Assembly: GCA_028712475.1 (NCBI GenBank)
Contig: JAQTQB010000003.1
Location: 1-64,000 of the forward strand
Length of the DNA: 64,000 bases
Direction: 5' to 3'
Origin: Verrucomicrobiales bacterium
GTDB lineage: Bacteria; Verrucomicrobiota; Verrucomicrobiia; Limisphaerales; UBA11358
Below, in pieces: positions 1 to 61,622 of this stretch (positions within the stretch are counted from its first letter, which is position 1; each line of letters starts with the position of its first letter). The translations under genes were made by a program, and so were the position numbers. The notes beneath the pieces were generated by a model. That model worked only from the letters and a program-made list of their open reading frames with translations, was not told the DNA's origin and made no database searches.

Positions 1-1759
1 TAAATTGCGCCGCTGAATCCGTCAGTTGAAAATGCTCCACACGGCGTTCACCAAACGGACGCCACAGCGAGATGTCACAATCATCTTCGCCGCCGAGAAA
101 ACCGACGACTTTAATGTCCGGCGGCAGCAACGCGCGGACGCCGGCGAGTGAATCCGAGCGTTCGGAATACACCGTGTAAACCTTCAGCGCGCGATTGATC
201 AGGCGCTGGTCGGGGTATCGCGCGTGCGCCTTGGACAAAATGGTTTTGGCCGGCCACAGCGGGCGGTCCGGCACCACGATCACAATGATGAAGGCAAAAA
301 TCAAAACCACGCCGACCAGTCCGCGCCACCACCACCGGCGGATGATTTCCGATTGCGCCGGGCCGATGAGCAGCAGCGGCAGCAGCAGCGGATAGTAGGG
401 CGCAATGAGCCGCGCCGTAGTGGTCATCCCCGATTTCATGCAATAGACCGCTAGCGAAACCCACGCCGCCAGCAGCACGCACCTGCAAAGCGCGGCGGGA
501 ATTTCAGTGCGGAATCCGCACTCGCCGCGTCGCATTCCGCACTTCCCAAGGACGGCAACCGCCAGCAGCAGGCTGACGCCAAACCCGAGGCCCGCCCAAT
601 CTTCCGTGGGCAGTTCGCCAATCGCAAAAAATCCGCCGTCGAAATAGTTGTCCGCCGCCGTGACCATGAAATGCGGCATGAACAGAGGCGCGTGCAGGTT
701 CCACCATCCGGCCAGCGGAAAAATGGGCGGGATGAAATTGACCAGCAGGATTTGAAAGCTGTGGCCCCAAAGCCCCACCCACGGGTTCTTCATGATCATG
801 AACGCCGGTTCCAGTTTCGCGCCCGACCAGTCGCCGCAATAATGAATGTTCAAAATGGCCATCGGCAGGAACGAGACCAGCGCCGCCAGCAAAATCATAA
901 ACGCGGTTGCAACAATTTTTTTCCGCAACAATGGCAGCACGGCAAAAATCAAAATTGCCCACGGCAGCAGCAGCGGCAGATTGCTGGGCTTGGCTCCCGT
1001 CAACAGCGCCGCTGCGAGAATGGAATGCCACACGTCCGCCGTCCGCCGCGAACGCCATGCCCGCGCGGCAAAATCAACCGCCGCCAGCGCGTAGGCCGTG
1101 GGGAAAGTGTCGTTGGCGATGCTGCCCGCCTGCAGCAGAAAATTATAGCCGGTCGGCAGCAGCCACATCCATTGCCACGCCACGCGGGCGCGGACGCCCA
1201 GCCGCGTGAAGATGCTGAAAACCAGTCCTGGCAGCAGCAGGAACGGGATGAAGTTGACCAGGAACAGCGCGCGGTCGGACTTCGTGAACAGCAGCAGCGG
1301 CGCGGTCAGCCATTCGAAGCCGCAGGCGCGGTCGTTCATCCGGTAGTTCTCGGTATGCACCCAGAACCAATGGTCGTGCGCCAGCCATTGCAGGACGCGC
1401 GCCACGCGATAGTTCAGCCCGGTGTAATTGCTCGGCGGATACAGCGCGCCACCCAGAAAAATCAGGACGGCCAGCGCTGCGAAACACAGCGGCAGCGGAC
1501 GACGGAAGCGGCGGGCGAGCGCGCGGAAGCGAAGATGGAAGATGGAGAATGGAAAATGGCCGCCTATCTTCAATCCTCGATTCTCAATCCTCGCCGTCAG
1601 GAACCAGTTGCGCCCTGCCAGAAGAAAAATTACGAAGGCGGCAAAGGCGATTCCGTAGCCGGTGCGGTTCAACTGACCGAAGGCCGAAAGCGTCCAGCCC
1701 GCCGCGACTGCGAATGCGGAAACCCAGAGCCAGAGCCGGACGAGCGGGACGAATGACAT
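1..1759 (-). CDS. Multi-pass GT-C-like membrane protein, partial (C-terminus off the window)
   Basis: The minus strand is open from an ATG at 1759 to the window edge (586 codons, no stop), so the C-terminus is missing. The translation starts MSFVPLVRLWLWVSAFAVAA and alternates about ten hydrophobic segments with short Arg/Trp-rich loops, including ANDTFPTAYALAAVDFAARA. This layout resembles GT-C (GT39/ArnT-like) glycosyltransferases that use polyprenyl-linked sugars at the inner membrane. I see no decisive catalytic motif, so the function is inferred from topology and from the neighbouring lipid A genes. It starts 23 bases after the cysE stop. A heptad-repeat palindrome (1531-1593) adds roughly 20 residues after the second membrane segment. 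A long plus-strand reading frame opposite it is a shadow. Confidence 0.75.
   Translation of the reverse strand, partial: MSFVPLVRLWLWVSAFAVAAGWTLSAFGQLNRTGYGIAFAAFVIFLLAGRNWFLTARIENRGLKIGGHFPFSIFHLRFRALARRFRRPLPLCFAALAVLIFLGGALYPPSNYTGLNYRVARVLQWLAHDHWFWVHTENYRMNDRACGFEWLTAPLLLFTKSDRALFLVNFIPFLLLPGLVFSIFTRLGVRARVAWQWMWLLPTGYNFLLQAGSIANDTFPTAYALAAVDFAARAWRSRRTADVWHSILAAALLTGAKPSNLPLLLPWAILIFAVLPLLRKKIVATAFMILLAALVSFLPMAILNIHYCGDWSGAKLEPAFMIMKNPWVGLWGHSFQILLVNFIPPIFPLAGWWNLHAPLFMPHFMVTAADNYFDGGFFAIGELPTEDWAGLGFGVSLLLAVAVLGKCGMRRGECGFRTEIPAALCRCVLLAAWVSLAVYCMKSGMTTTARLIAPYYPLLLPLLLIGPAQSEIIRRWWWRGLVGVVLIFAFIIVIVVPDRPLWPAKTILSKAHARYPDQRLINRALKVYTVYSERSDSLAGVRALLPPDIKVVGFLGGEDDCDISLWRPFGERRVEHFQLTDSAAQF
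1531..1593. repeat. Heptad-period repeat, two arms, inside a gene
   Basis: The left arm (1531-1558) is AGATGGA, AGATGGA, GAATGGA, AAATGG. The right arm (1565-1593) is ATCTTCA, ATCCTCG, ATTCTCA, ATCCTCG. Both have period 7 and they are loosely complementary. The element lies in frame in the membrane-protein gene and is translated as part of an apparent insertion between hydrophobic segments. Confidence 0.8.
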
Positions 1760-1782
1760 GGGCTTGATTGGATTTTTGACAA

Positions 1783-2697
1783 TCAAATCTGAAAATCCAC
1801 CGTCGTTTGTTTGTCCGCCTTGCTCAACACGCGCATGTCGAGGCCGTCGTAAATCACCAGCGAGTTCGGCGCGACGCTGTCCATGATGAACACGTTGCCG
1901 CCGATCGTGCTGCCCGCGCCGATGACCGTCTCGCCGCCGAGAATCGTCGCGCCCGGATAAATTGTCACGCGGTCCTCAATCGTCGGATGCCGTTTCTTGC
2001 CGCGCAATTGCTGGCCGCCCGCCGTGGACTTCGCGCCCAGCGTCACGCCATGATACATCTTCACATGGTTGCCGATGGTGGCCGTCTCGCCGACGACCGT
2101 GCCGGTGCAATGATCCACAAAAAAGTGCGAGCCGATCTTCGCGCCCGGATGCAGGTCCATGCCCGTGCGCGCGTGCGCCCACTCGCTCATGATGCGCGGG
2201 ATGAGCGCGACGTTTTTCAAATACAACTCGTGCGCCAGCCGCTGCACCGCGATGGCCTCGACGAACGGATACGAAACCAAAACTTCTTCCTTGCTCGCCG
2301 CCGCCGGGTCGCCATCGAACGCGGCTTCCACGTCCGTCTGCAAGACTTCGCGGATGCGCGGCAGGCTGCCGAGAAATTCCACCGTCAAGCTGTGCGCCGC
2401 CTTCGTGATGTCCTTTTTGGCAAGGCCGGCGGGTGGATTGTATTCCAGGCTCTTGCGGATTTCGTCCTCCAGTTTTCCGAGAACCGAGTCCAGCAGCGCC
2501 GCCGTTTCCATTTTGATTTCCGACGAGTGGACCAGCTTCTCATCAAAGAATCCGGGGAACAGCAGCCGCAGCAAATCCTGCGTGAACGCCGTGACGACGC
2601 GCTTGGACGGCAGGTTTTTCCCGTCCAGATGGTTGATGCCGCCGAGGCGCGCATACGACGCGACGAGTTCGTTCGTGAGTTGAGTGACGGTTTCCAC
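1783..2697 (-). CDS. cysE: Serine O-acetyltransferase, EpsC/SrpH type
   Basis: This cytoplasmic enzyme acetylates L-serine with acetyl-CoA, the first committed step of cysteine synthesis. The 304-residue protein has an alpha-helical N-terminal half of about 180 residues, then a left-handed beta-helix hexapeptide domain. Conserved stretches are LHPGAKIGSHFFVDHCTGTV (active-site His/Asp region) and GETATIGNHVKMYHGVTLGA, with the family Gly-rich turn near IGGNVF. The length and long N-terminal region fit the EpsC-like branch rather than the shorter E. coli CysE. It follows waaF in the same direction, separated by a repeat palindrome that could insulate it from the lipid A genes. The start ATG at 2697 gives a full-length N-terminus; no strong ribosome binding site is visible. 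Confidence 0.93.
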   Translation of the reverse strand: METVTQLTNELVASYARLGGINHLDGKNLPSKRVVTAFTQDLLRLLFPGFFDEKLVHSSEIKMETAALLDSVLGKLEDEIRKSLEYNPPAGLAKKDITKAAHSLTVEFLGSLPRIREVLQTDVEAAFDGDPAAASKEEVLVSYPFVEAIAVQRLAHELYLKNVALIPRIMSEWAHARTGMDLHPGAKIGSHFFVDHCTGTVVGETATIGNHVKMYHGVTLGAKSTAGGQQLRGKKRHPTIEDRVTIYPGATILGGETVIGAGSTIGGNVFIMDSVAPNSLVIYDGLDMRVLSKADKQTTVDFQI

Positions 2698-2740
2698 AGC
2701 AGCGATTTACCACAAAGTCGTGAAGACAAAAAGAAAAGAC

Positions 2741-2838
2741 TTTAACCACAAAGACACCAAGACACGAAGCTTTTGAAAAATCCAATGGTTCGCAAATCTA
2801 TTTCGTTTCTTGGTGCTTTTGTGCCTTGGTGGTTAAAC
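2741..2838. repeat. AACCACAAAG-type inverted repeat between cysE and waaF
   Basis: The left arm (2741-2769) begins TTTAACCACAAAGACACCAA and the right arm (about 2807-2838) ends GTGCCTTGGTGGTTAAA. They form a long imperfect hairpin. A second degenerate half-site (TTACCACAAAG) lies just before it at 2707. The right arm contains the TAA stop codon of waaF (2833-2835). I recognise this arm sequence as a type common in environmental bacterial genomes. Confidence 0.85.
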
Positions 2839-3975
2839 CGTTTTCAGAACGGCTTCAACGACGCGCTCCACGCTGATGCCGTTCATGCAGCGGAAATCAA
2901 TCGGGCATTCGCGCAGAAAACACGGCGAACACGGTGCGTCGGATTTGATCAAACGGTGCCGCGCGTCGCCCGGCAAACCCGGCCCGGTCAGTTCCGGCGA
3001 CGTGCTGCCGAAAGGCGCGACGACTGGCGTGCCCAGCGCGGCGGCGACGTGCATGGGGCCGGTGTCGTTCGTGAGCAGGACGCGGCAAATCTTCAGGAGC
3101 GCCATGAGTTCGCGGAGAGAAGTCTGGCCGGACAAATTGCGGATTGCGGATTGCGGATTGCGGATTGCAGATTCGATTCGGGCGGTCAACTGAAGGTCGC
3201 CTTTGCCGCCGAACAAAAGCCAGGCGCAGTTTGTGCGGTTTTGAATTTCCTGCGCGGCGGCAATGAATCTTTCCACGGGCCAGCGCTTGGCGGGGCCGTA
3301 TTCCGCGCCGGGATTCAAGCCGAAAACCGGCCCGTCATTTTTCTCCAGCCCGAATTTTTTCTTCGCCGCTTCAATTTCATCCGGCATCACCGTCAACAGT
3401 GGCGCAAGCGGTTCAGGATTTGCACCCAGCGCGGCGGCGAGGTGCAGATACTCGTGGATATGATGTGCGTTCGTAACTGCGCACGGCAGAGCGTGGCTGT
3501 TTGAATCTGGCCGCTGACTGCCGCCAGCAGCCACGAGTTTTTGGATTTCCGCCGCCGTTCGCTTGTGCATTTTCACCGCGTTGGTGCGCGGCGCGACAGT
3601 TTGCGTCAGGAAAAAATTCCGCCACGGACGCGCGTAGCCGACGCGCTGCGGGATTCCCGCGAGCCACGTTTCAATCGCCGAGCGCGGTGAGTTTGGCAGC
3701 ACGAGCGCGAGATCAAATTCGCCGGCGCGCAGTTGTTTGCCGATGGAGAAAACGCCTTCGCCCGGCGCAAACGAAATTGTTTCGTTCACCGCCGGATGAT
3801 TTAGCCAGAGGTCTTTAAGCTTTTCCGGCGTGAGCAGCGCGATGTGTGCGTCGTGAAATTTCTCCCGCAGCCGCAGCAGCGCGGGCGTGGTCATCACCGC
3901 GTCGCCCAGCCAATTGGTGCTTCGCACCAAAATTCTGCGTGGATGGAGGATGGAGGATGGAGGATGGCTTGCCAT
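2833..3975 (-). CDS. waaF: ADP-heptose:LPS heptosyltransferase II-like (GT9)
   Basis: This glycosyltransferase family 9 enzyme adds heptose to the LPS inner core at the cytoplasmic face of the inner membrane. The core starts ILVRSTNWLGDAVMTTPALL, the hallmark WaaF N-terminus. Family blocks PAKRWPVERF and LLTNDTGPMHVAAALGTPVV follow, with a Cys-rich end (CSPCFLREC). I place the start at the ATG at 3975, inside a heptad repeat, giving 380 residues and the N-terminus MASHPPSSILHPRRILVRS. The open frame extends upstream to 4221, but that part is antisense-like shadow of lpxL. A second repeat adds [12 protein letters not shown] in frame (3136-3180), and the stop codon lies in a third repeat. lpxL ends 2 bases upstream, so the genes are probably co-transcribed. 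Confidence 0.92.
   Translation of the reverse strand: MASHPPSSILHPRRILVRSTNWLGDAVMTTPALLRLREKFHDAHIALLTPEKLKDLWLNHPAVNETISFAPGEGVFSIGKQLRAGEFDLALVLPNSPRSAIETWLAGIPQRVGYARPWRNFFLTQTVAPRTNAVKMHKRTAAEIQKLVAAGGSQRPDSNSHALPCAVTNAHHIHEYLHLAAALGANPEPLAPLLTVMPDEIEAAKKKFGLEKNDGPVFGLNPGAEYGPAKRWPVERFIAAAQEIQNRTNCAWLLFGGKGDLQLTARIESAIRNPQSAIRNLSGQTSLRELMALLKICRVLLTNDTGPMHVAAALGTPVVAPFGSTSPELTGPGLPGDARHRLIKSDAPCSPCFLRECPIDFRCMNGISVERVVEAVLKTV
3136..3180. repeat. Heptad tandem repeat (ATTGCGG) inside waaF
   Basis: At least four exact ATTGCGG units are followed by degenerate units (ATTGCAG, ATTCG, ATTCG). On the coding strand this reads as the heptapeptide NPQSAIR, in frame in waaF. The same unit on the same coding strand occurs in thiD at 52377. 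Confidence 0.95.
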
Positions 3976-4000
3976 TTCTATTCTCCATCCTCCATCTTCG
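3941..4000. repeat. Heptad palindrome (GGATGGA) at the lpxL/waaF junction
   Basis: The left arm (3941-3967) repeats GGATGGA. The right arm (3976-4000) carries the complementary TTCTCCA, TCCTCCA series. The element holds the last residues and TAG stop of lpxL (3978-3980) and the ATG of waaF (3973-3975), so the boundary between the two genes is made of repeat DNA. Confidence 0.95.
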
Positions 4001-4901
4001 TTTCTGCCTTCACAGGCTTCGCAGGTTTCCAGCGCTTGTGAACCCAGAACCAGTTGGCGGGGTCGCGGCGCACGGCGGCTTCGAGGGCGCGGTTGACGTC
4101 CAGCATGATGTCCGCGGTGGAACGGGCGACGCCGTTTATGCGCGTGGGAATTTCGTCGCCCACTTCGATGTGCCATTTGGCCAGGCCGGTGCGGTAGCAG
4201 ATGGAGGTGTGCAGCGGGCAATTATAACGAAGCGCAAAAACCGCCGACGCGGCGGAGGTGGAACAGTCGTGGCCGAGGAATGGCAGGCGCAATCCGTTGC
4301 GGCCCGCGTGCTGGTCCGCGAGCAGGCCGAGCAGCAGGCCGGTGTCGCTCATGGCCTCCTTGAGCGCGGCGGCATCGGTGCGCCGCTCGAAAAAACGGCA
4401 GTCGGAGGTCTGGCGCAGGGACACCATGATGCGGTTGAGCGCGGGCTGTTTGAGGGCGCGATACGTTGCGGCGCATTTGAAGACGGGCACGAACTGGCCG
4501 AACCGGGCGTAAAGCTCGAAGTTGCCAAAATGCCCGATGGCCACGATCCGGCTTTGCGGCCCGGCGTTGGCTTCGTGCGGCACAATGCTTTTCGCGAACT
4601 TAAAATCAAAATGCGGATGCATCTGCCACGGGAGCATCGCCGCAGTTTTGATGGCGCTGCAGTAATTTTCGCCGATGCGCCGGAAATTTTCCTTCGCGAT
4701 GGCGCGGATTTCCTGCGGCGATTTTTCGCTGCCAAAGCACAGCGTGAGATTGTCCAAAGCCACCTTCCGGTGCCGCGCGTCGAGCCAGTAGGCCAGCGCG
4801 CCCAGCGTCCGGCCCAGCCGCGCGACCCAGACCAGCGGCAACGCCTGCAAAATGGCGACCACGCCGCGCGCCAGATAATAAATCAGCGTGTCCATGTTCA
4901 C
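3978..4901 (-). CDS. lpxL: Lipid A lauroyl-type acyltransferase
   Basis: This LpxL/HtrB-family acyltransferase transfers a secondary acyl chain to lipid A at the inner membrane. The 307-residue protein has an N-terminal hydrophobic segment (LIYYLARGVVAILQALPLVW), then the catalytic HX4E-type motif GHFGNFE near residue 140. Further family blocks are LLADQHAGRNGLRLPFLG and DPANWFWVHKRW near the C-terminus. Its start overlaps the lpxK stop by four bases (ATGA), which suggests translational coupling. The last residues, KMEDGE, and the stop come from the heptad repeat at 3941-4000. The native C-terminus has therefore probably been replaced. The exact acyl donor cannot be told from sequence. Confidence 0.92.
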   Translation of the reverse strand: MNMDTLIYYLARGVVAILQALPLVWVARLGRTLGALAYWLDARHRKVALDNLTLCFGSEKSPQEIRAIAKENFRRIGENYCSAIKTAAMLPWQMHPHFDFKFAKSIVPHEANAGPQSRIVAIGHFGNFELYARFGQFVPVFKCAATYRALKQPALNRIMVSLRQTSDCRFFERRTDAAALKEAMSDTGLLLGLLADQHAGRNGLRLPFLGHDCSTSAASAVFALRYNCPLHTSICYRTGLAKWHIEVGDEIPTRINGVARSTADIMLDVNRALEAAVRRDPANWFWVHKRWKPAKPVKAETKMEDGE

Positions 4902-6070
4902 CTGAAACAGATTTTACGGACGCAATCCTGGAAGTCGTTCGCCCCGGCGACAATCTTGATCTCGACGCGCATGAAAAATATCGGCAGGTCGCGCCGGTCA
5001 ATTTTCGGGAAGCGCACGGCGTCCTTTTGCGTGGTGATGATGACTTCGGCCTGGCGTTTTTTTGCGCGGTTGATCACGTTGATGACTTCCTGCTGCGTGA
5101 ACCGGTGATGGTCGGCGAAGCGTTTGGAATAGACGAGTTCGCCGCCGAGCTTCACGAGGCTTTGCTCGAAGCTTTCCGGCTGTGCGATGCCGCTCAACGA
5201 CGCGACCTTTTTTCCTTTCATAAATTCCAGGCCCATGCGCTCGCCGCTGAACACGTCCTCGAAATAAAGCGGATGATGCACGCACTCGATGACGGGGGCG
5301 TCGGAGTTTAATCTGGCGATCCGTTCGCGCAGTTCCGCCGTGTTGCCGTCGCTTTTGGTGATGAAAATCGTGTGGGCGCGCGAGAGGTGCGAGGGCGGCT
5401 CGCGCAGGGTGCCGCGCGGGAGGAGATGCTCGTTGCCGAACGGCTGCTGGCGGTCAATCAGCACGACATCGTGGCGGCGTCCGCGCAGATGCCAGTATTG
5501 AAACCCGTCGTCGAGCAGCAGCGTGTCGCAGCCGAACTTTTCAATCGCGTAGCGTCCGCTCTTCACGCGGTCTTTGTCCACGAGCACGACGACGTCCTTT
5601 AAATTGGACGCGAGCATGTAGGGTTCGTCGCCGGCGGTCTCGGAATCGAGCAGGAGCGATTTGCCGTCGGACACGACGCGCGGCGGCGTCTGGTCTTCGC
5701 GCAATAGAATTTTGTTGATGAACTTCTGGTGCAGCGGCGCGGGTTTGGAACGGTAGCCGCGCGAAAGGATCGCCACGTTGCGACCGGCGTCGCGGAGTTC
5801 GCGCGCAAATTTTTCCACGACGGGGGTTTTGCCGGTTCCGCCGACGGTGAGGTTGCCGATGGCGATGACCTGGACGCCGAGCGTTTTGTCGCGGAGGATG
5901 CGGACGTTGTAAAGCCAGAGGCGGATTTTGACGGCGACCTGGAATACTTTCGAGCCGCCAAACAACGTGGTGCGCGTCAGCTTCGCCTTAAAATCGTGTC
6001 GCTCCTCGAAAACGACTTCAAGGAAGAAAGTTTCTAAAGCTTCGGCCCAGGCCCGGAAAGTTTCGCGCAT
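4898..6070 (-). CDS. lpxK: Tetraacyldisaccharide 4'-kinase
   Basis: LpxK phosphorylates the 4' position of the lipid A disaccharide at the inner membrane, using ATP. The 390-residue protein has the expected N-terminal amphipathic region and the P-loop [20 protein letters not shown] near residue 95, then ILSRGYRSK. The DDGFQYW motif lies at about residues 205-210. It is somewhat longer than typical LpxK proteins because of its N-terminal segment ([20 protein letters not shown]). It is the first gene of lpxK-lpxL-waaF and overlaps lpxL by four bases. The gap upstream (6071-6208) contains a palindromic repeat. Confidence 0.95.
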
Positions 6071-6127
6071 TGCGGTCTAATGTGCCAAGCGCGCGCAGTC
6101 GCGGCAAGATTGGTTGTAAACCAGATT

Positions 6128-6199
6128 GGCGGGGCGAGACTCCCGGCGAGCCGTGGTGACCGTCTGCAAAGACCGGCTTGCGAGGACGCTCGCCCCACC
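6128..6199. repeat. REP-like palindrome between lpxK and the suf operon
   Basis: The left arm starts GGCGGGGCGAGACTCCCGGC and the right arm ends GAGGACGCTCGCCCCACC. They pair with a few mismatches around a loop of about 15 bases. The element lies in the 138-bp gap downstream of the suf operon and could act as a transcription terminator-like hairpin or be a mobile repeat. Confidence 0.75.
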
Positions 6200-6208
6200 G
6201 GATAAATT

Positions 6209-6685: not shown

Positions 6686-6689
6686 TGGT

Positions 6690-8041: not shown

Positions 8042-8054
8042 GGGCTCGGTTTTG

Positions 8055-8335: not shown

Positions 8336-8339
8336 AATT

Positions 8340-31844: not shown

Positions 31845-33407
<1,563 letters not shown>

Positions 33408-33493
33408 ACCACGGGTCCGAGGTAACAATCGGACTTCCGAGGTCGGACGAAGGTTTGAGAGTCAAATTTCAAACTGTTCGGATTTGGCTCAAG

Positions 33494-33535
33494 CTAATCG
33501 CACAATTCAATCTTCAAGGGCAATGCTCTTTGAAC
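33494..33535 (+). promoter_or_regulatory. 16S processing stem 3' arm and second boxA
   Basis: Bases 33494-33517 pair with 31706-31729. TGCTCTTTGAAC at 33524-33535 repeats the leader boxA, as expected for antitermination in the 16S-23S spacer. Confidence 0.75.
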
Positions 33536-33589
33536 AAACAAGTGAAAAAATCGAACGCTGACCAGCGCCGAGAATAAATTTATTCGTGT

Positions 33590-33665
<76 letters not shown>

Positions 33666-33685
33666 GCTCAGCTTTTACGCCGGGC

Positions 33686-33762
33686 GGGCGTGTAGCTCAG
33701 TTGGTTAGAGCATGCGCTTGATAAGCGCAGGGTCACTGGTTCGAATCCAGTCACGCCCACCA
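33686..33762 (+). tRNA. tRNA-Ile (GAT)
   Basis: The acceptor stem GGGCGTG pairs with CACGCCC. The anticodon loop TTGATAA carries GAT. The T arm contains GTTCGAATC, and CCA is encoded at 33760-33762. It follows tRNA-Ala by 20 bases, the reverse of the common Ile-Ala order. Confidence 0.97.
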
Positions 33763-33839
33763 CTTGTTTGCAACAATTTTCCGAAACCAGCCGCCGGAGC
33801 CTTGAAACTCCGGCAGCGCAGTTCGGTGCGTTCTTTGAC

Positions 33840-33850
33840 AACTACACATA
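33840..33850 (+). other. 5' arm of the 23S pre-rRNA processing stem
   Basis: AACTACACATA pairs perfectly with TATGTGTAGTT at 36874-36884, downstream of 23S. This is consistent with an RNase III processing stem around 23S. Confidence 0.7.
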
Positions 33851-33917
33851 GGTAAAACAAAAGTAGGGCAAAAATACAATTCGCCGAGTAGTCATCAGAG
33901 ATGATGATATATTTTGT

Positions 33918-36783
<2,866 letters not shown>

Positions 36784-36956
36784 TTTTTTATTAAACCAGT
36801 CTTAAACTTCGGTTTATGACTGCACGATAAAAGCGTTTTTAACTCGCGAATTGTAGTAGCTCGAAATTGTCCTTATGTGTAGTTTTCAGGGAATCACCGA
36901 ACCGCTTCGGATATGATCTTTATAAATTTTGCACGGTTGAATCCGTGCTAATCAAT

Positions 36957-37070
36957 TTGGTGGCCATAAAGCTGTGGTCCGACCCGTTCCCATTCCGAAC
37001 ACGGCCGTCAAACACAGTCTTGCCAATGGTAGTGGTTGTATAGCTTCCGCGAGAGTAGGTTGCCGCCAGT
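36957..37070 (+). rRNA. rrf: 5S ribosomal RNA
   Basis: GGTGGC at the start pairs with GCCGCC at the end. The inner sequence CCCGTTCCCATTCCGAACAC is the conserved 5S loop. The 174-base gap after 23S (36784-36956) holds the 23S processing arm and no gene. Confidence 0.92.
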
Positions 37071-37076
37071 CTTTCA

Positions 37077-51239: not shown

Positions 51240-52085
51240 ATGAATTTTCTGCTCCAGAACCGACCCCGACAGCGCGCAGCTTTCACGCTGATCGAGCTGC
51301 TTGTCGTCATTGTCATCATCGCCATTCTCGCCGCGCTGCTGCTGCCGGCGCTTTCCCGCGCCAAGGCCAGGGCATACCAGATTCAATGTCTGGGCAACCT
51401 CAAGCAGTTGTCGCTGACCTATGCGCTCTACACCGGCGACAACAGCGAGAAACTGCCCCCAAACGGTTACAGCGACAGCGCCAATCCCGCTCCCGGCGTG
51501 AACCGGCTCTGGGTCATGGGCGGCGAACATATTTTCCCAAACGAATTCACCAACACAGATTTTCTGATCAACCCCCAGTTCGCGTTGTTCGCCGATTATC
51601 TGCGCACCCCGGCAGTCTATAAATGCCCGGCCGACCGCACCACCGTCGCAATGGGCGCAGAGCAAATGCCACGAGTTCGAAATTATACGCTCAACGCCTA
51701 TTTCAACTGGCAGTTTCCAGCCAACGACCTGCCGAACAACAATCAATATTTGACCTTTGTCAAAACTTCAGAAATCGCAAGGGCTGGCGGAAGCGCGCTT
51801 TTTACCTTTATTGACACGGCCCCGGTCAACATTTGTAATTCTGCGTTCCAAGTTTTCATGGGCACCAGCACCTATTTTTGGCACCGGCCTTCGGTGGAAC
51901 ACGACAACTCCGGCACTGTCGCCTTTGCTGACGGCCATGTTGAAGCCCACGCCTGGCGCAATCCCGCCACCATCCAGGCCGCGCGCGACGGTGGCGTCGG
52001 TGATGGCGCGCATTTCACTTTGGGCAACTCTTCCATAAACCCCGATTTCAAATGGCTCCAAGACCACGCCAGCATTCACAAGTGA
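51240..52085 (+). CDS. Type II secretion/prepilin-like protein with H-X9-DG C-terminal domain
   Basis: The 281-residue protein begins with a class III-type signal [20 protein letters not shown], then a hydrophobic helix and the family sequence [20 protein letters not shown]. The C-terminal part carries [20 protein letters not shown] (HX9DG-like). The residue before the Phe is Ala, not the usual Gly; verrucomicrobial members commonly have Ala there. Such proteins are pseudopilin-like and occur in many copies per genome. Their role is not established. The start ATG at 51240 is chosen over longer frames that run through polX shadow. Its stop overlaps the thiD GTG. Confidence 0.88.
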
Positions 52086-52975
52086 AGAAAATCCAACCGC
52101 GATCCATCGCACTTACCATCGCCGGCTCCGACAGCGGCGGCGGCGCAGGCATCCAGGCCGATTTGAAAACTTTCGCCGCGCTCGGCGTTCACGGCACGAG
52201 CGTCATCGCCTGCCTGACCGCGCAAAATCCCAGACACGTCCTCGGTGTCGAACCGTGTTCTCCCAAAATGCTGCGGCAGCAAATCGAAGCCGTGTTTGAA
52301 GAACTTCCGCCGGCGGCGGTGAAAACTGGAATGTTGTTCTCGGTTGAAAATATTGCAGCGGTCGTAAATTTTTTTGGCAATCCGCAATCCGCAATCCGCA
52401 ATCCGCAATTGGTTGTTGACCCGGTGATGGTTTCCACCAGCGGCGCGCGGCTGCTGCAGCCGGCGGCGGAGAAAATCTTGAAGGAAAAATTGCTGCCGCT
52501 CGCTGTGCTCGTCACGCCGAACCTGGACGAGGCTGAAATCTTGACCGGACAAAAAATTTCATCCATCGAAGCCATGCGCGCGGCGGCGCGGGAAATCCAT
52601 TCGCACTACGGCTGCGCGGCGCTGGTGAAAGGCGGACACCTGAAAAGTTCCCGCGAGGCCGTGGATGTTTTCTTCGATGGCGAAACGGAACTGCTGCTCT
52701 CCGCGCCGTTTGTGAAAGGCGTGTCCACGCACGGCACCGGCTGCACTTATTCGGCGGCGATTTGCGCGGCGCTGGCGCTGGGGCACAGTTTGCCGCACGC
52801 GGTGGAGATCGGGAAAAATTTTATCACGGCGGCCATCGCCAACAGCTATCGCATCGGAAACCACTTTGCGCTCGGTCAGGTTTCGCGGGACACGCTCAAA
52901 AATTCGGGCGGCGCAGGCGGAAGAACTGGTTCGCGTTCGTCGTGTTCAGCTTTAGGCTGTTCATGTTGTTCGTGA
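52082..52975 (+). CDS. thiD: Hydroxymethylpyrimidine/phosphomethylpyrimidine kinase
   Basis: ThiD phosphorylates HMP and HMP-P in thiamine synthesis. The 297-residue protein has the ribokinase-type opening [44 protein letters not shown] and the catalytic anion-hole region [21 protein letters not shown] heptad repeat (52377-52410) adds [10 protein letters not shown] in frame just before LVVDPVM. The C-terminal tail [20 protein letters not shown] is encoded by DNA opposite the end of the convergent subtilase-like gene (80-base overlap) and looks non-native. The GTG at 52082 overlaps the preceding stop. Confidence 0.95.
52377..52410. repeat. Heptad tandem repeat (CAATCCG) inside thiD
   Basis: Four CAATCCG units and a partial unit lie in frame and encode [10 protein letters not shown]. 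It is the same unit as in waaF at 3136, read on the same strand. Confidence 0.95.
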
Positions 52976-55386: not shown

Positions 55387-55388
55387 AA

Positions 55389-55461
55389 ATTTACGATTGC
55401 CGATTTACGATTTACGATTGATAAATCTGCGGCGCGTAAATCGTGAATCGCAAATCGTAAA
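55389..55461. repeat. Heptad palindrome (ACGATTT) between queE and the aminotransferase
   Basis: The left arm repeats ACGATTG, CCGATTT, ACGATTT, ACGATTG, and the right arm has TAAATCG, TGAATCG, CAAATCG. They can pair around TGCGGCGCG. The element fills nearly the whole gap and ends three bases before the GTG of the next gene. The right-arm orientation contains stops, consistent with its non-coding place. Confidence 0.9.
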
Positions 55462-55464
55462 CCC

Positions 55465-56848
<1,384 letters not shown>

Positions 56849-56859
<11 letters not shown>

Positions 56860-56966
56860 ACTCGGATAGACACGAATCCGAAAACGGGTTGACGCTAATT
56901 TCACGAATTTTCGCGAATTCAAAACCGGAATCAATTCGTGTTAATTCGCGCAATTCACGTCAAAAT
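56849..56966. repeat. AACCACGAATGA/AATTCGCG inverted repeat, copy 1
   Basis: AACCACGAATGA supplies the aminotransferase stop codon (56857-56859). Then TTGACGCTAATTTCACGAAT (56889 onward) pairs loosely with AATTCGCGCAATTCACGTCAA (ending near 56962) around a short loop. A related copy lies at 60679-60815. Confidence 0.88.
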
Positions 56967-56974
56967 CTTTTCCC

Positions 56975-57967
56975 ATGACTCTCACCGAAATGCGCTCCTT
57001 GCTGGCGAAACGCGACATTCAATTGACGCGCTCGCTCGGCCAGAATTTTCTCCACGACGGCAACCAGCTTCGCCGTATCGTGGACGCGGCGGAGCTGACG
57101 CCGCCGGACAACGTTCTCGAGATCGGGCCGGGGCTGGGGCCGCTGACGGAATTGTTAGTTGAGAAAGCGGGTGAAGTGCTGGCAATTGAGATGGACGCGC
57201 GGCTCGTGGAGGTTTTGTGTGAACGATTCGGTTTGGAAAAAAAAGAAGGAGCGCCCGCCCTCTCCCCGGCCATCTCCCCCGAGGAGAGGGAGAATATTTC
57301 GGACGCGTCCGTAAATTTCACGCCTCCGGATTTGTCCCAGCGCGGAAATGAAAATCCCCCTCTCCTTGGGGAGAGGGCCGGGGTGAGGGAGGACAACCAT
57401 CATCCCGACAACTTATTTCTGATCCACGACGACGCGCTTGCCTATCTCAAACGCGAGGCGCGCGACTGGAGCGATTGGAAGCTCGTGGCGAACCTGCCAT
57501 ATTCCGTCGCCTCGCCGATTTTGGTGGAACTCGCCGCCGGTCCGCGCGCGCCGAAGCTGATCGTCGCCACGCTGCAACTGGAAGTTGCGAAGCGGCTGAT
57601 GGCGCAGGCGGACGACGACGATTACGGCATTCTGACGCTGCTGGTGCAGATTGATTTTGAGCCGCGCGGCAGCTTCAAGATTCCGCCGGAATGTTTTTTC
57701 CCGTCGCCCGACGTGGACTCCGCGTGTGTGTGCCTCGTGCGCCGCGCGACGCCGCTGCTGCCGGAAAATCTCCGCGCCACCTTTGTGAAAATCGTGAAGC
57801 GCGGCTTCTCGCAACGGCGCAAGATGATGCTGAAACTGCTCAAGCAAGACTGGCCGAAGGAAAAACTGGCCGCCGCGTTCGCCGCGCTGAACATCTCGCC
57901 GATGGAACGCGCGGAGAAATTGACGCTGGAACAGTTTGTGGCGCTGACGGAAAAACTTTTCAATTGA
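56975..57967 (+). CDS. rsmA: 16S rRNA dimethyladenosine transferase with repeat-derived insertion
   Basis: RsmA (KsgA) dimethylates two adjacent adenosines near the 3' end of 16S rRNA during ribosome maturation. The 330-residue protein has the family start RDIQLTRSLGQNFLHDGNQL, motif I VLEIGPGLGPLTELLVEKAG, NLPYSVASPILVEL (motif IV NLPY) and FFPSPDVDSACVCLVRR. Between LVEVLCERFG and NLFLIHDDALAYL about 50 residues are inserted (PALSPAISPEEREN to PPLLGERAGVRED). They are encoded by a palindromic repeat at 57251-57393. This falls in the SAM-binding domain, in a place where a surface loop is expected, so activity may be kept. Confidence 0.95.
   Translation: MTLTEMRSLLAKRDIQLTRSLGQNFLHDGNQLRRIVDAAELTPPDNVLEIGPGLGPLTELLVEKAGEVLAIEMDARLVEVLCERFGLEKKEGAPALSPAISPEERENISDASVNFTPPDLSQRGNENPPLLGERAGVREDNHHPDNLFLIHDDALAYLKREARDWSDWKLVANLPYSVASPILVELAAGPRAPKLIVATLQLEVAKRLMAQADDDDYGILTLLVQIDFEPRGSFKIPPECFFPSPDVDSACVCLVRRATPLLPENLRATFVKIVKRGFSQRRKMMLKLLKQDWPKEKLAAAFAALNISPMERAEKLTLEQFVALTEKLFN
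57251..57393. repeat. CCCTCTCC/GGAGAGGG palindrome inside rsmA
   Basis: The left part (CCCTCTCCCCGGCCATCTCC with GAGGAGAGGGAG) and the right part (CCCCTCTCCTTGGGGAGAGG with CCGGGGTGAGGG) are each hairpins and also pair with each other. A related single hairpin lies before clpX at 61532-61576. I recognise this arm sequence as a widespread bacterial REP-like motif. Confidence 0.88.
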
Positions 57968-58000
57968 GGTTGAAACAAATGTGGCGCATTTTTTTGTCTT

Positions 58001-58468
58001 ATGCAAAATGGAACATTGTTTGGACTGTTCGGACGAAGCCTTTATCTGAATTTATTTATCGCTGTAGCCGTTTGTCTTGCTCCACGAGCACACGCTGAGG
58101 AACCAGTTATAAAAGATGCTGTGCTTTATTTAGAGAATTTTTTGTTTATGACAAACGTTACGATTAAAGCCGATGTTTTAAGTTTGAATCCTGGCACATT
58201 AAAAATTCGCCTTGCGGATAAGGATTACGACTACTCTGGAAATTTTACGATAATTCTGGATAAACCCCGCGAACACAAAACTTCCTATTTTGGTTTTGGT
58301 GCTCCAGAGAAGGCAAAATTTGTGATTCTAAATAATGTTCTTAAACAAACTACATTTCCACTTGCAGATGCCACGATTTGGGAAAAGAAGAAGAACTATG
58401 TCGTGTTAGAATCCGCAGGCAAGGAGTGGATTCATTCTGGCGGTTATACAATCCAAAATTCACCGTGA
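58001..58468 (+). CDS. Secreted hypothetical protein, AT-rich
   Basis: The 155-residue protein has a signal peptide (LFIAVAVCLAPRAHAEEP), with cleavage likely after AHA. The mature part is beta-rich (FLFMTNVTIKADVLSLNPGT, then KIRLADKDYDYSGNFTIILD). I recognise no family. The DNA is visibly AT-richer than rsmA and clpP, and the gene opens a block of accessory genes ending with a ParDE pair. It precedes the next gene by seven bases. Probably recently acquired; no function is proposed. Confidence 0.8.
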   Translation: MQNGTLFGLFGRSLYLNLFIAVAVCLAPRAHAEEPVIKDAVLYLENFLFMTNVTIKADVLSLNPGTLKIRLADKDYDYSGNFTIILDKPREHKTSYFGFGAPEKAKFVILNNVLKQTTFPLADATIWEKKKNYVVLESAGKEWIHSGGYTIQNSP

Positions 58469-58475
58469 AGTCTTC

Positions 58476-59252
58476 ATGGCAGACACGCTCCAAGATTTGA
58501 TTGCCTCGGTGATACTGGATATTCCCGTTGCGGCCGATCATCTTAAATCTGCACGCGAAGAAATTTGCCGCCAGATTGATCCAGAAATTGACTTTTATAT
58601 CCGCCAACAATTGGATTGTATCGTCAATGTAGCGAAAGACGCTTCGTTTTTGGCGACTCATTTACGCTTTCATAATCTTAGCGCCTTGTGCCGCTTGGCA
58701 TTTGAATCGCGCATTCATTTTCTCTCGGCAATTAAAATTGAAGGGTATGTTGCTCGAAAATTCATCAAGCAAACAACCGAGCATATCGCCAGATTGAAAG
58801 CCATGGCTTCGGACAGCCAAATCGCGATGTTCGTCGGCGAAGAGGTAAAGCGCCACGAATCGTATTTGCAAACATTGCTGACTAATTATAGCGGAATTCC
58901 AGAGCGTCAGTGGAATCTTAAAGAGGCCGCAACCGAGATCGGTTTGTCGCAAGAATATGACGGAAGATACGTCGGTCTTTCGCAGGCTATCCATAGCACA
59001 CCAGCAGGGTTGTTGACTAAAGACGACCCATACATTGTCGCTTCGAGCTTGGTATTTCTTTTTGCAGATGTTCTAAACACAATTGAGTTCACGATTGCCC
59101 CATTGAGCAATGGTGTTTCGCAAGGGCCGTTGTCTGGAGCATGGAAAGAGCTTTTCGATCCTTTGATTTCATTGAGGAAGCAGGAAGTTGTTTTTAAGAA
59201 ACGGCTCAACGAATTTTCAACGCAGGAAATTGATTCCAAAAACAATTTTTGA
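58476..59252 (+). CDS. Helical hypothetical protein, DUF5677-like
   Basis: The 258-residue, all-helical protein contains HNLSALCRLAFESRIHFLSA near residue 70, which resembles the R-x-x-x-E-type helix of the DUF5677 family. A His/Asp-rich helix region follows. Its DNA is AT-rich. The family has no firmly known role and is often found near defence or toxin genes; here it precedes a phosphatase-like gene and a ParDE pair. The assignment is tentative. The stop overlaps the next start by four bases. Confidence 0.78.
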   Translation: MADTLQDLIASVILDIPVAADHLKSAREEICRQIDPEIDFYIRQQLDCIVNVAKDASFLATHLRFHNLSALCRLAFESRIHFLSAIKIEGYVARKFIKQTTEHIARLKAMASDSQIAMFVGEEVKRHESYLQTLLTNYSGIPERQWNLKEAATEIGLSQEYDGRYVGLSQAIHSTPAGLLTKDDPYIVASSLVFLFADVLNTIEFTIAPLSNGVSQGPLSGAWKELFDPLISLRKQEVVFKKRLNEFSTQEIDSKNNF

Positions 59253-59614
59253 CGCAATTGAATAACTCCAACGAGCGCACAAAAATTCTTTTCGTGTGCA
59301 GCCGCAACCGGCGGCGTAGCCTGACGGCGGAAACGATTTTCAAGGGCGAACCGGCGTGGGACGTTTGTTCGGCGGGAACCGAAGAAAGTGCGCGCATCAA
59401 AGTGACTGCAGGACATCTCGGCTGGGCCGATGTCGTTGTGGTGATGGAAAAGCGACACAAGGAACGGCTGCGGCAAAAATATCCGGAGGAACTCGCGGCG
59501 AAACGATGTGTTTGCCTTTTCATTTCCGACGATTACGAGTTTATGGACGCAAACTTGATTGAGCTTTTGCGCGAGAAAATGCGGGAATATTTTCCGTCGG
59601 CAGGCACGGCTTGA
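59249..59614 (+). CDS. Low-molecular-weight protein-tyrosine-phosphatase-like protein
   Basis: The 121-residue protein has the CX5R(S) loop FVCSRNRRRSLTAETIF near residue 17 and SAGTEESARIKVTAGHLGWA, typical of low-molecular-weight phosphatase folds of the short type. A general-acid Asp is plausible in the FISDDYEFMDANL segment. It probably dephosphorylates a small phosphoester or phosphotyrosine in the cytoplasm; the substrate is unknown. The start is a TTG at 59249 overlapping the previous stop, which is unusual but gives the full N-terminus. A TTG three codons later is possible. Confidence 0.85.
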   Translation: MTQLNNSNERTKILFVCSRNRRRSLTAETIFKGEPAWDVCSAGTEESARIKVTAGHLGWADVVVVMEKRHKERLRQKYPEELAAKRCVCLFISDDYEFMDANLIELLREKMREYFPSAGTA

Positions 59615-59644
59615 TTTATTCCGCGGTTACCATAGTTTGATTGC

Positions 59645-59860
59645 ATGAATGTCGCCTTGCCGCGAAACCTTGAAGAGTATGTGGCTGAACTGGTGCAAAC
59701 CAGCGGTTACAAAGCCCCGGATGAGGTCGTTTCGGAAGCGTTGCGAGAACACCAGTCGCGTCGGCAGATTCTCATGACGCCGGAATTGGAACGGCTGCTC
59801 GATGAAGGCCTGGAAGATTTGGACCAGGCCAAAACGACCGACGAATTGCGTCGGTCATGA
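59645..59860 (+). CDS. ParD-like antitoxin
   Basis: The 71-residue protein begins MNVALPRNLEEYVAELVQTS, a ribbon-helix-helix DNA-binding start. It continues KAPDEVVSEALREHQ, the typical ParD/CopG sequence, with an acidic C-terminal toxin-binding tail (RLLDEGLEDLDQAKTTDELR). It should neutralise the ParE-like toxin encoded next and repress the operon. Its stop overlaps the toxin ATG by four bases. Confidence 0.92.
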   Translation: MNVALPRNLEEYVAELVQTSGYKAPDEVVSEALREHQSRRQILMTPELERLLDEGLEDLDQAKTTDELRRS

Positions 59861-60177
59861 TTCACGCCAGGTTCAGTCCAAAAGCCGCGCACGATTTGGA
59901 CGAAATTGTTCGATTTATTGCTTCCGATAATCCCGATGCCGCGCAACGCGTGCGGAACACGATTCTCGATGTCGCCGATCTTCTTGCGCAAAACCGTGAA
60001 CTTGGCAGACATGTTCGCAATGCTTCTCCGCGTCACGCGCAAATCCGCTGGTTTGTCGTTCCGAAGTTTCGCAATTATCTGATTTTTTATCAGCCATTTC
60101 AGGAAACCGTCATGGTGGTTCGCGTGCTTCATGCGGCGCAGGATTGGACGCGGTTTTTCCCGCCGGAAAATCTATGA
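59857..60177 (+). CDS. ParE/RelE-family toxin
   Basis: The 106-residue protein has the ParE fold sequence MIHARFSPKAAHDLDEIVRF, then IASDNPDAAQRVRNTILDVA and RWFVVPKFRNYLIFYQPFQE with VMVVRVLHAAQDW. ParE-type toxins poison DNA gyrase, whereas RelE-type toxins cleave mRNA; the sequence is closer to ParE. It pairs with the ParD-like antitoxin. Its own stop overlaps the Nudix ATG by four bases, so toxin and Nudix protein may be co-expressed. Confidence 0.93.
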   Translation: MIHARFSPKAAHDLDEIVRFIASDNPDAAQRVRNTILDVADLLAQNRELGRHVRNASPRHAQIRWFVVPKFRNYLIFYQPFQETVMVVRVLHAAQDWTRFFPPENL

Positions 60178-60704
60178 GCGAAGAAATTTTCGACATCGTC
60201 AATGAGCGCGACGAGGTGGTCGGGCAGGCACCGCGCAAGGAGGTTCATGCGCGCGGGTTGTGGCATCGCGCGGTGCATGTGCTGGTGTTCAATGCGCGCG
60301 GCGAGGTTTTCCTTCAGAAGCGCTCCATGCAAAAGGACATCGCCGCCGGCAAGTGGGATTCGTCGGCGTCCGGCCATCTGGACACGGGCGAGGATTACGA
60401 CACGTGCGCGGTGCGCGAGGTGCGCGAGGAGATCGGCCTGCACCTGACGGCGACGGGGGCGTCGCGGCCACTTACGCGGCTTTTCAAGATTGACGCATGC
60501 AAGGAGACGGGCTGGGAATTCTGCTGGATTTACACCTGCCGAAGCGAAGGGCCGTTCATCTTGCATCCCGAGGAAATCGAGACGGGTGGATGGTTTACGC
60601 CGGATGCGGTGACGAAGTGGATGAGCGAGAAGCCGCAGGATTTCGCCAGCGCGTTTGTGTTGATCTGGAAAACATTTTTAACCATGAACCCGAAAACGGT
60701 TTGA
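60174..60704 (+). CDS. Nudix hydrolase
   Basis: The 176-residue protein carries a complete Nudix box, GHLDTGEDYDTCAVREVREE followed by IGLHL near residues 66-90, which binds Mg2+ and hydrolyses a nucleoside-diphosphate-linked substrate. The opening IFDIVNERDEVVGQAPRKEV is typical of the YfcD/Idi-like Nudix branch, so the substrate is uncertain. The start ATG at 60174 overlaps the ParE stop. The last codons and stop (TMNPKTV) lie within a repeat (60679-60815). Confidence 0.92.
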   Translation: MSEEIFDIVNERDEVVGQAPRKEVHARGLWHRAVHVLVFNARGEVFLQKRSMQKDIAAGKWDSSASGHLDTGEDYDTCAVREVREEIGLHLTATGASRPLTRLFKIDACKETGWEFCWIYTCRSEGPFILHPEEIETGGWFTPDAVTKWMSEKPQDFASAFVLIWKTFLTMNPKTV

Positions 60705-60815
60705 CGCGAATTACGCGAATTTTCGCCAATTCAAAATCAAATCACGACTTCTGCGGTAAATTAAAATCGTTTTACAGAAGTTCAATTAGCGTTAATTCGC
60801 GAAATTCGCGCAAGG
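60679..60815. repeat. TTGACGCGAATT/AATTCGCG inverted repeat, copy 2
   Basis: ACCATGAACCCGAAAACGGT followed by TTGACGCGAATTACGCGAAT pairs loosely with GTTAATTCGCGAAATTCGCG near 60790-60810. It resembles the copy at 56849-56966 and supplies the Nudix stop codon. The middle (CAAATCACGACTTCTGCGGT and on) is different. Confidence 0.85.
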
Positions 60816-60872
60816 TCTTTTTTCTCTTGCCGGTCGCGTAATAAACCTTTCACGACTTTACTTGCGGCGAAA

Positions 60873-60878
60873 AAGGAG
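60873..60878 (+). promoter_or_regulatory. Strong ribosome binding site of clpP
   Basis: AAGGAG lies 12 bases before the clpP ATG and pairs with the 16S 3' end CCTCC. It supports the start at 60891. Such clear sites are rare in this window. Confidence 0.7.
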
Positions 60879-60890
60879 TAGTTATTTCCC

Positions 60891-61520
60891 ATGCAAAATT
60901 ATTACGTTCCGATTGTGGTGGAGCAGACGGGCCGCGGGGAGCGGAGCTGGGACATTTATTCCCGCCTGCTGGTGGACCGCATTCTTTTTCTCGGCACGCC
61001 GGTGGATGACACGGTGGCGAACATCATCATTGCGCAGCTTTTATTTCTCCAGATGTCAGATCCGAAGAAGGACATCCATCTCTACATCAATTCGCCCGGC
61101 GGCAGCGTCACGGCGGGGCTGGCGATCTACGACACGATCCAATACATGACCTGCGACGTGAACACCTATTGCGTCGGGCAGGCGGCGAGCATGGGCGCGG
61201 TGCTGCTGGCGGCGGGCGCGAAGGGCAAGCGTTATGCGCTGCCGAATTCCAACGTCATGATCCATCAGGTGCTGGGCGGCGCGGAAGGCCAGGCGAGCGA
61301 CGTGGAAATCCGCGTGAAACACATGCTCAAACTCAAGCAGACGCTGAACGCCATTCTCGCGAAGCACACCGGCAAGCCGGCGGAACAGGTGGAAAAGGAT
61401 TGCGACCGCGATTATTTCATGTCCGCCGAGGAGGCGAAAGCTTACGGCCTGGTGGATCAAGTCGTGCAATCGCGGAAGGAAATTCCCGGCGCAGTGGATA
61501 AAACGTCGGTGATAGTATGA
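60891..61520 (+). CDS. clpP: ATP-dependent Clp protease proteolytic subunit
   Basis: ClpP is the serine protease barrel that degrades proteins fed by ClpX or ClpA. The 209-residue protein has the catalytic Ser in [20 protein letters not shown], the His in [20 protein letters not shown] and the Asp in [20 protein letters not shown]. Standard N-terminal processing sequences are present ([20 protein letters not shown]). Length is normal. clpX follows 108 bases later with a palindrome and heptad repeat in the gap. Confidence 0.97.
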
Positions 61521-61525
61521 ACTCA

Positions 61526-61622
61526 AAGCGAACCCTCACCCCGGCCCTCTCCCTTTCCGAAAGGGCGAGGGAGAAGCGTTGTGGTGTTCGGTGCTTGTCA
61601 CTCGTCACTCGTCACTCGTCAC
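61526..61622. repeat. REP-like hairpin and heptad (TCACTCG) tract between clpP and clpX
   Basis: CCCTCACCCCGGCCCTCTCC and AAGGGCGAGGGAG form a hairpin (61532-61576). Then three TCACTCG units and a partial one follow (61598-61622), ending seven bases before the clpX ATG. Both repeat classes seen elsewhere in the window lie side by side here. Confidence 0.9.

What the first reader, a model, noticed from the sequence alone, without database searches (positions are those of the whole stretch)
1531..61622. Heptad-period repeats that read the same in every frame and insert into genes
At least eight tracts with an exact 7-base period but different units occur: AGATGGA (1531), ATTGCGG (3136, 52377), GGATGGA (3941), ACGATTT (55389), CACGCAT (55784), CAATCGG (56060), TCACGCG (56603), TCACTCG (61598). 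Because 7 is coprime to 3, a perfect tract gives one heptapeptide (NPQSAIR, GWRMEDG, QSAIGNR) in every frame. CAATCCG, GGATGGA, AGATGGA and CAATCGG lack stops on both strands, so all six frames stay open. Units whose reverse strand would carry stops are found only in the open orientation inside genes. GGATGGA also offers an ATG in every frame. The design tolerates insertion into genes and may be a neutral by-product or a selected property. Heptamer STRR repeats of cyanobacteria are the nearest known parallel. I know of no description of the frame property here.
Basis: partly seen in the sequence, partly recalled or inferred. Interest (0 to 1): 0.8.

Follow-up and report, generated by a model that had tools for sequence, protein, structure and literature searches.

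The report
Seven-base repeats in loops and spacers
Short DNA stretches that repeat every seven bases sit in flexible loops of proteins and between neighbouring genes of this bacterium, and its relatives carry different seven-base repeats at the same places, often without a change in length; that they read the same in every frame is simple arithmetic.

Summary
The repeats are real and period 7 is special: 52 imperfect period-7 tracts in 748 kb of this genome, against 0-8 for other tested periods (14 and 21 aside) and 0 in the Markov control. Seven of the nine listed places hold exact tracts; two are imperfect. The frame property is arithmetic: unit stop content is like random heptamers, tracts are depleted in genes (35 of 99; coding fraction 0.85), and frame and orientation effects were described for TAACTGA repeats in 2015.

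(1) 39 of 99 tracts have an inverted partner within 150 bp (control 4 of 99), mostly at junctions of co-directional genes. (2) At the same protein loops relatives carry different units (up to 12 per site); at three of six sites loop length is the same with and without a tract, and unequal lengths are rarely multiples of 21 (5 of 168 pairs). (3) Variable columns tend to be contiguous.

Best reading: known heptanucleotide repeats, made by 7-nt slippage-type copying in weakly constrained DNA, with partly length-neutral concerted turnover. The copying step is inferred. New variant of a known kind.

The parts
1528..1592 (.). two imperfect heptad arms (1528-1559 and 1564-1592), an inverted pair inside a gene called at 2-1759 (-)
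   Evidence: no Pfam match for the gene at 1e-5
2833..3975 (-). heptosyltransferase II gene; start at 3975 inferred from orthologs (the gene caller put it at 3894)
   Evidence: TIGR02195 and PF01075; junction compared
3133..3176 (-). heptad tract, AATCCGC in coding sense, in a loop of the heptosyltransferase (site Hep1)
   Evidence: 12 distinct units among 16 tract-bearing orthologs
3933..3967 (-). GGATGGA arm; on the minus strand it encodes the N-terminus of the heptosyltransferase if the gene starts at 3975
3975..4002 (.). inverted partner arm, over the stop and C-terminal codons of the lipid A acyltransferase gene (3978-4901, -)
52374..52418 (+). heptad tract CAATCCG in a loop of ThiD (ORF 52052-52975)
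55389..55426 (+). first arm (GATTNNN) of the heptad hairpin in the 78-nt spacer between queE (ends 55386) and the aminotransferase (starts 55465)
55435..55463 (+). second arm (AATCNNN) of the same hairpin
55784..55813 (+). imperfect TCACNNN tract in the class-III aminotransferase (site AT1)
56036..56127 (+). GTAG-tagged REP-like palindrome inside the aminotransferase, with the tract (AATCGGC)n at 56068-56098 in its loop (site AT2)
56596..56627 (+). TCACGCG tract in the aminotransferase (site AT3)
61583..61622 (+). TCACTCG tract between clpP (ends 61520) and clpX (called start 61629); no inverted heptad partner found

Best explanation
These are bacterial heptanucleotide repeats that arise and turn over by a DNA-copying process with a 7-nucleotide step, in DNA that tolerates change: protein loops, gene ends, spacers of co-directional genes, loops of REP-like palindromes. 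Shown here: the excess at period 7, the inverted pairing, the location, different units at the same orthologous loop, whole columns changed in register between orthologs of equal length, and a contiguous constant core with variable positions. Inferred: during replication a strand slips by about 7 nt using the 4-5 nt core as microhomology, copies some bases and often realigns, so that bases are overwritten without a length change; fold-back copying would make the inverted arms. The tracts are mostly neutral; the frame property and the strand bias in genes follow from arithmetic and from selection against stops.
For: Period-7 excess, also in 864 kb of tract-selected contigs from other phyla (113 tracts; 0-21 for other periods). 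Inverted partner in 39 of 99 vs 4 of 99 control. 18 of 20 spacers with a heptad pair are co-directional. Lag-7 self-match >=14/17 in 46 ortholog regions, lags 5 and 6 once each, lags 4 and 8-11 never. Distinct units per tract-bearing orthologs: 7 of 11, 7 of 8, 10 of 14, 12 of 16, 6 of 7. 89 of 117 equal-length pairs have a column changed in nearly all units with units that differ under every rotation; 79 of them keep two or more columns in register. Invariant run 199 vs 175.7 +- 4.9 (0 of 3000).
Against: No mutation was observed; all is comparative. Length does change elsewhere: G011 has an array of about 28 TCACCCG-type units and G018 long arrays, and Xanthomonas repeats differ in length between species (PMC4692102). 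ThiD and AT1 loops are longer with tracts. The lag-1 test of contiguity was weak (165 of 3000). Own hairpin arms match no better than same-class arms of other hairpins (11 of 20 above the mean), which does not support recent arm-to-arm copying. Equal lengths may reflect shared ancestry and limits on loop length. Why 7 is not explained.
Confidence: 0.5

Rival explanations
1. Ordinary heptanucleotide slippage: units are gained and lost by 7 nt. In genes a +7 frameshifts and a later -7 restores the frame (a phase-variation-like cycle), which homogenises units while selection restores length.
For: Long arrays exist; unit number varies in Xanthomonas; at the queE-aminotransferase spacer G000 and G003 differ as if one unit had been gained and one lost at equal total length (my reading).
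Against: Of 168 unequal tract-bearing pairs only 5 differ by a multiple of 21; 147 of 315 pairs are equal. It needs frameshifted intermediates in ThiD and a heptosyltransferase. It does not explain inverted pairs.
Confidence: 0.22
2. Dispersal of mobile palindromic elements (REP- or MITE-like) whose arms are heptads, moved by a Y1 or other transposase.
For: Inverted arms shared among loci by class; one tract lies in a GTAG palindrome with 134 near matches in the genome; the queE-aminotransferase hairpin is present in 2 of 20 genomes in which the pair was found adjacent, against 1-9 nt in 7 of them.
Against: Hairpin loops are mostly unrelated in the listing; a specific arm matched 2 places in G000; Y1 counts do not follow AATC-tract counts by eye; most intragenic tracts lack a partner (31 of 35); loop lengths unchanged at three sites.
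Confidence: 0.11
3. Selected function of the DNA or RNA: protein-binding heptads, or hairpins at gene junctions that tune translation coupling or mRNA stability.
For: Contiguous core with variable positions; 18 of 20 heptad-pair spacers are co-directional and 22 of 30 co-directional spacers with tracts have one within 12 nt of a gene end.
Against: Units differ between orthologs at the same site; relatives lack the hairpin at the same junction; density is patchy.
Confidence: 0.1
4. One reading: a frame-neutral repeat selected, or at least suited, for insertion into genes.
For: Sense strand open in 11 of 13 one-sided intragenic tracts.
Against: Depletion in genes, no comparable excess at other periods with the same property, stop content like random heptamers.
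Confidence: 0.04

Closest known systems
GGGNATC repeats of Xanthomonas and GGGGA(T/C)T of Nostoc (PMC4692102; passages read)
   Same: 7-bp units, often about four copies, heterogeneous positions, under-represented in coding DNA, between aligned ORFs, near gene ends, inverted pairs in 70 and 75 cases in two Xanthomonas genomes.
   Different: Here many unit classes in one genome, several without G-runs; different units at the same orthologous loop at equal length. Nostoc had few inverted pairs; intragenic share 7-11% in Xanthomonas, 35 of 99 here.
Long simple sequence repeats with heptanucleotide units (Mrazek 2007, not held; seen only as cited in PMC4679880 and PMC4692102)
   Same: Excess of 7-nt units; slippage tied to polymerase contact length was proposed there.
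   Different: In-place turnover at orthologous loops and the inverted pairing tested here; I could not check whether that paper treats them.
TAACTGA direct repeats of Beggiatoaceae, Cyanobacteria, Bacteroidetes (PMC4679880; passages read)
   Same: Heptamers near gene ends; stops in all frames in one orientation, a heptapeptide in the other.
   Different: One fixed unit; related heptamers rarely or never repeated there; direct, hardly inverted.
Cyanobacterial STRR heptamers (recalled; cited in passing)
   Same: 7-bp tandem units; AATCNNN tracts found here in Nostoc, Calothrix and others.
   Different: Not compared sequence by sequence.
GTAG REP palindromes and Rickettsia RPE inserts (PMC3733652, passages)
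   Same: Palindromes in co-directional spacers and inside genes, in loops or linkers; known in a verrucomicrobium.
   Different: Conserved palindrome sequence; heptads are a periodic pattern without fixed sequence and occur mostly outside these palindromes in the tracts I saw.

Membership tests
Bacterial heptanucleotide simple repeats | tandem units of exactly 7 nt beyond chance | tested here: met
Bacterial heptanucleotide simple repeats | unit number changes by slippage | tested here: inconclusive
   long arrays in G011, G018; ortholog lengths rarely differ by 21 (5 of 168)
Xanthomonas/Nostoc G-rich heptamers | G-run in each unit able to form a quadruplex | tested here: not met
   window and ortholog units such as CAATCCG, TCACGCG, AAAACTA lack runs of three G or C; some other tracts are G-rich
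Xanthomonas/Nostoc G-rich heptamers | inverted pairs and aligned-ORF spacers | tested here: met
TAACTGA repeats | unit TAACTGA | tested here: not met
   not among the 99 listed own tracts; no separate search of the whole genome
GTAG REP | conserved GTAG-tagged palindrome | tested here: not met
   true only of the palindrome around 56068 and some others; other tracts shown lack it
GTAG REP | linked to a Y1 (RAYT) transposase | tested here: inconclusive
   36 of 40 genomes have Y1 matches; counts do not follow AATC-tract counts by eye
Cyanobacterial STRR | sequence classes of the original STRRs | not tested
   original paper not consulted

The most novel reading that the evidence does not exclude
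A templated 7-nt rewriting process works in many bacterial phyla: it overwrites loosely constrained DNA, including enzyme loops and the facing ends of neighbouring genes, with heptamer repeats without changing length, and each lineage keeps its own repeat dialect because tracts at one locus can template others (within-genome unit distance 2.74 vs 3.11 +- 0.12 shuffled, 9 of 5000; relatedness and composition not controlled).
Probability: 0.3. Interest if true: 0.82.

Novelty: new variant of a known kind. Interest (0 to 1): 0.56.

Why it matters
Why bacterial simple repeats so often have a 7-base unit has been open since at least 2007 (as cited in PMC4679880 and PMC4692102). Orthologous loops in which the unit is replaced in register at constant length make this a testable question about replication. 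It also warns that such loops in annotated proteins may reflect DNA-level copying rather than selection on the peptide, and it offers one frame for repeats that were described apart (GGGNATC, STRR-type).

Tried and rejected
Frame-neutral design as the cause of period 7: rejected on stop content, depletion in genes and lack of a comparable excess at other periods not divisible by 3. Y1 transposase as driver: no visible correlation. A fixed high-copy heptad element: one AACA-type arm matched 2 places in G000. Hairpin arms as recent copies of each other: own partner no better than other same-class arms. G-quadruplexes as the common cause: many units lack G-runs. Conserved phase of the AAYY core: seen at ThiD, by eye not at AT3, not claimed in general. 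No particular polymerase was tested.

Mended while checking: the aligner dropped a stop symbol in some ThiD rows, which shifted their DNA by one codon; counts of concerted columns were therefore redone with every stop kept as X (89 of 117 pairs instead of 98). Lag counts, lengths and distinct units did not change. One search used the older alignment; its units are compared under rotation.

The gene caller is home-made and misplaces some starts, e.g. the tract at 3941 was called intergenic but encodes an N-terminus if the start inferred is right. Thresholds were mine, set while working. Genomes are drafts. Site Hep2 was added because the G000 sequence looked odd there, without a tract of its own. 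Genomes with tracts of 10-12 of 17 count as without. Tracts whose sequence was dominated by period 1-3 (>=0.65 identity) were dropped before counting. One search gave 0 of 2000 for contiguity but includes tract ends; I rely (50 tracts).
Full report
1. The observation. Exact tracts lie at 3136-3168, 3941-3967, 52377-52409, 55401-55419, 56068-56098, 56610-56627 and 61597-61622; 1531 and 55784 are imperfect. Runs of at least 14 lag matches in the window: 5 for period 7, 1 for period 3, 0 for the other periods from 2 to 15. The window was chosen for the finding, so I took 284 kb elsewhere in the same genome: 7 such runs for period 7, 3 for period 14, 0-1 for the other periods up to 24; control for period 7: 0. 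Imperfect tracts (>=17 of 21 lag matches) over 748 kb, window included: 52 for period 7; periods 4, 5, 6, 8, 9, 10, 11, 12, 13, 15, 17 give 0, 0, 4, 4, 2, 8, 2, 3, 0, 5, 1; 14 and 21 give 35 and 7; control for period 7: 0. With the looser >=15 of 21, period 7 gives 99 (control 10); these 99 are the set used below.

2. Frame property. A unit whose length is not a multiple of 3 gives one repeating peptide in every frame by arithmetic. Random heptamers are open on both strands in 50-60% of cases, on one in 30-37%, on none in 9-13%. The 64 tracts not fully inside genes give 33, 29 and 2. Inside genes 33 of 35 majority units are open in sense; of 13 one-sided ones 11 are (p 0.011), as selection against stops predicts. 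35 of 99 tracts lie inside genes, against a coding fraction of 0.852. MacGregor 2015 noted for TAACTGA that one orientation has stops in all three frames and that the other gives heptapeptide repeats (passages).

3. Hairpins. 39 of 99 tracts have an inverted partner (>=15 of 20) within 150 bp; the same tracts moved to random places give 4 of 99, and direct copies in the flanks 1 of 99. Pairing: 4 of 35 inside genes, 35 of 64 elsewhere (Fisher p 2.9e-5). Of 602 spacers 20 hold a heptad inverted pair: 18 co-directional, 2 divergent, 0 convergent. Among 30 co-directional spacers of 20-400 nt with tracts, 22 have a tract within 12 nt of a gene end, 13 at both ends. The window has three pairs: 1528-1592, 3933-4002, 55389-55463. 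The last fills the 78-nt spacer between queE and the aminotransferase. In 20 of 27 genomes queE was found upstream: G000 and G003 have 78 nt with a GATTNNN/AATCNNN hairpin whose triplets differ, seven genomes have 1-9 nt, eleven have 23-183 nt of other sequence. The pair at 3933-4002 spans the stop of the acyltransferase and the likely start of the heptosyltransferase, so its arms would encode a C-terminus and an N-terminus; at that junction G002 has a heptad hairpin and G008 a heptad tract.

4. Core and spacer. Varying columns tend to be contiguous (GTGAC+NN, AACA+NNN). With 7 nt cut from each end of 50 tracts (own genome, G021, G029) the summed longest invariant run is 199 against 175.7 +- 4.9 for shuffled columns (0 of 3000); a lag-1 statistic was weaker (165 of 3000). 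Own hairpin partners were not clearly closer than same-class arms of other hairpins (mean 18.8 vs 17.7).

5. Orthologs. ThiD (28 genomes), the class-III aminotransferase (27) and the heptosyltransferase (27) were aligned within the genus and order (names). In six variable regions a self-match of >=14 of 17 occurs at lag 7 in 46 cases, at lags 5 and 6 once each, at lags 4 and 8-11 never. Distinct units among tract-bearing genomes: ThiD 7 of 11, AT1 7 of 8, AT3 10 of 14, Hep1 12 of 16, Hep2 6 of 7. At Hep1, AATCCGC, AATCGGC, CATCGGC, CATCCAG, CACGCAC and AAACTGA-type units occupy the same loop. Median length with/without tract: AT3 90/90, Hep1 135/135, Hep2 144/144 (p 0.44, 0.43, 0.82); ThiD 96/84 (p 0.001), where three same-genus genomes below the threshold also have 96; AT1 91.5/66 (p 0.03); AT2 162/81 with one bearer, inside a palindromic insertion.

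6. Concerted change. Among 117 pairs of equal length with tracts at nearly the same place, 89 have at least one column that differs in nearly all units, with units that differ under every rotation; 79 of these keep two or more columns in register (which corrects). Close examples: G013/G014 GGAAGTT vs GGAAATC, G008/G012 CATCGGC vs AATCGGC. Of all 315 tract-bearing pairs at five sites 147 have equal length, 5 differ by a multiple of 21, 163 otherwise. Whole-unit slippage kept in frame would give multiples of 21. Pairs share ancestry, so this describes rather than tests. Units are more alike between loci of one genome than with genomes shuffled within sites (2.74 vs 3.11 +- 0.12; 9 of 5000); relatedness and base composition were not controlled.

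7. Spread. AATCNNN three times followed by AAT occurs in 33 of 40 genomes (own included), reversed-pattern control 0-3 per genome; G010 and G011 have none but 2 and 3 control hits. In those 864 kb, away from the selecting tract, period 7 gives 113 tracts, periods 4, 5, 6, 8, 9, 10, 11, 13 give 0, 1, 10, 21, 10, 3, 0, 1, and 12 and 15 give 17 and 18; 51 of 116 loci have a further tract; 26 of 82 forward AATC tracts have an inverted partner. Samples of 36-100 kb from G002, G005, G010, G025 and G031 had none; G034 had 12 and G000 6.6 per 100 kb; G011 and G018 have long arrays. The trait is patchy.

8. REP link. The tract at 56068 lies in the loop of a GTAG-tagged palindrome with 134 near matches (<=3 mismatches) in the genome; loops vary and some others hold heptads (by eye). 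The palindrome is at the same aminotransferase site in G033 and, altered, in G002, without the tract. GTAG REPs inside genes, also in a verrucomicrobium, are on record (PMC3733652, passages).

9. Reading. Known: heptamers are prominent among bacterial simple repeats and a polymerase-contact explanation was proposed (Mrazek 2007, only as cited). Known in Xanthomonas: about four units, inverted pairs, aligned ORFs, closeness to gene ends, also length differences between species. Not in the passages I read: many unit types with this anatomy in one genome, and replacement of the unit at orthologous protein loops at constant length. The listings of searches showed me no paper on that; most subscription journals are not held. 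Best reading: 7-nt slippage-type copying, often length-neutral, in weakly constrained DNA; the copying step is inferred, and ordinary +-7 slippage with selection on frame is the main rival.

Noticed in passing
window 56975-57967: ksgA/rsmA (TIGR00755) carries an extra stretch of about 50 residues that looks like a REP-type palindrome read in frame (translation).
   Followed up: no
window 2700-2840: Spacer with an inverted repeat whose arms have a rough period of 8 to 10 (CACAAAGACACCAAGACACGAAG); relatives have period-10-like arms (CATCCGTGTC) at other spacers.
   Followed up: partly
window 61530-61582: Palindrome CCCTCACCCCGGCCCTCTCCC..GAGGGAG just before the TCACTCG tract, between clpP and clpX.
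   Followed up: no
L235 (G003, ThiD locus): The ThiD loop that holds a heptad tract elsewhere holds a GC-rich palindromic insert in frame in G003 (168 nt against 96).
   Followed up: partly
L317 2916-3110 (G011): Array of about 28 TCACCCG-type units, by far the longest seen.
   Followed up: no
L394 (G001, heptosyltransferase locus): An in-frame tandem duplication of about 34 residues at the Hep2 loop (246 nt against 144).
   Followed up: no
window 31845-37071: Complete rRNA operon: 16S, tRNA-Ala(tgc), tRNA-Ile(gat), 23S, 5S.
   Followed up: no
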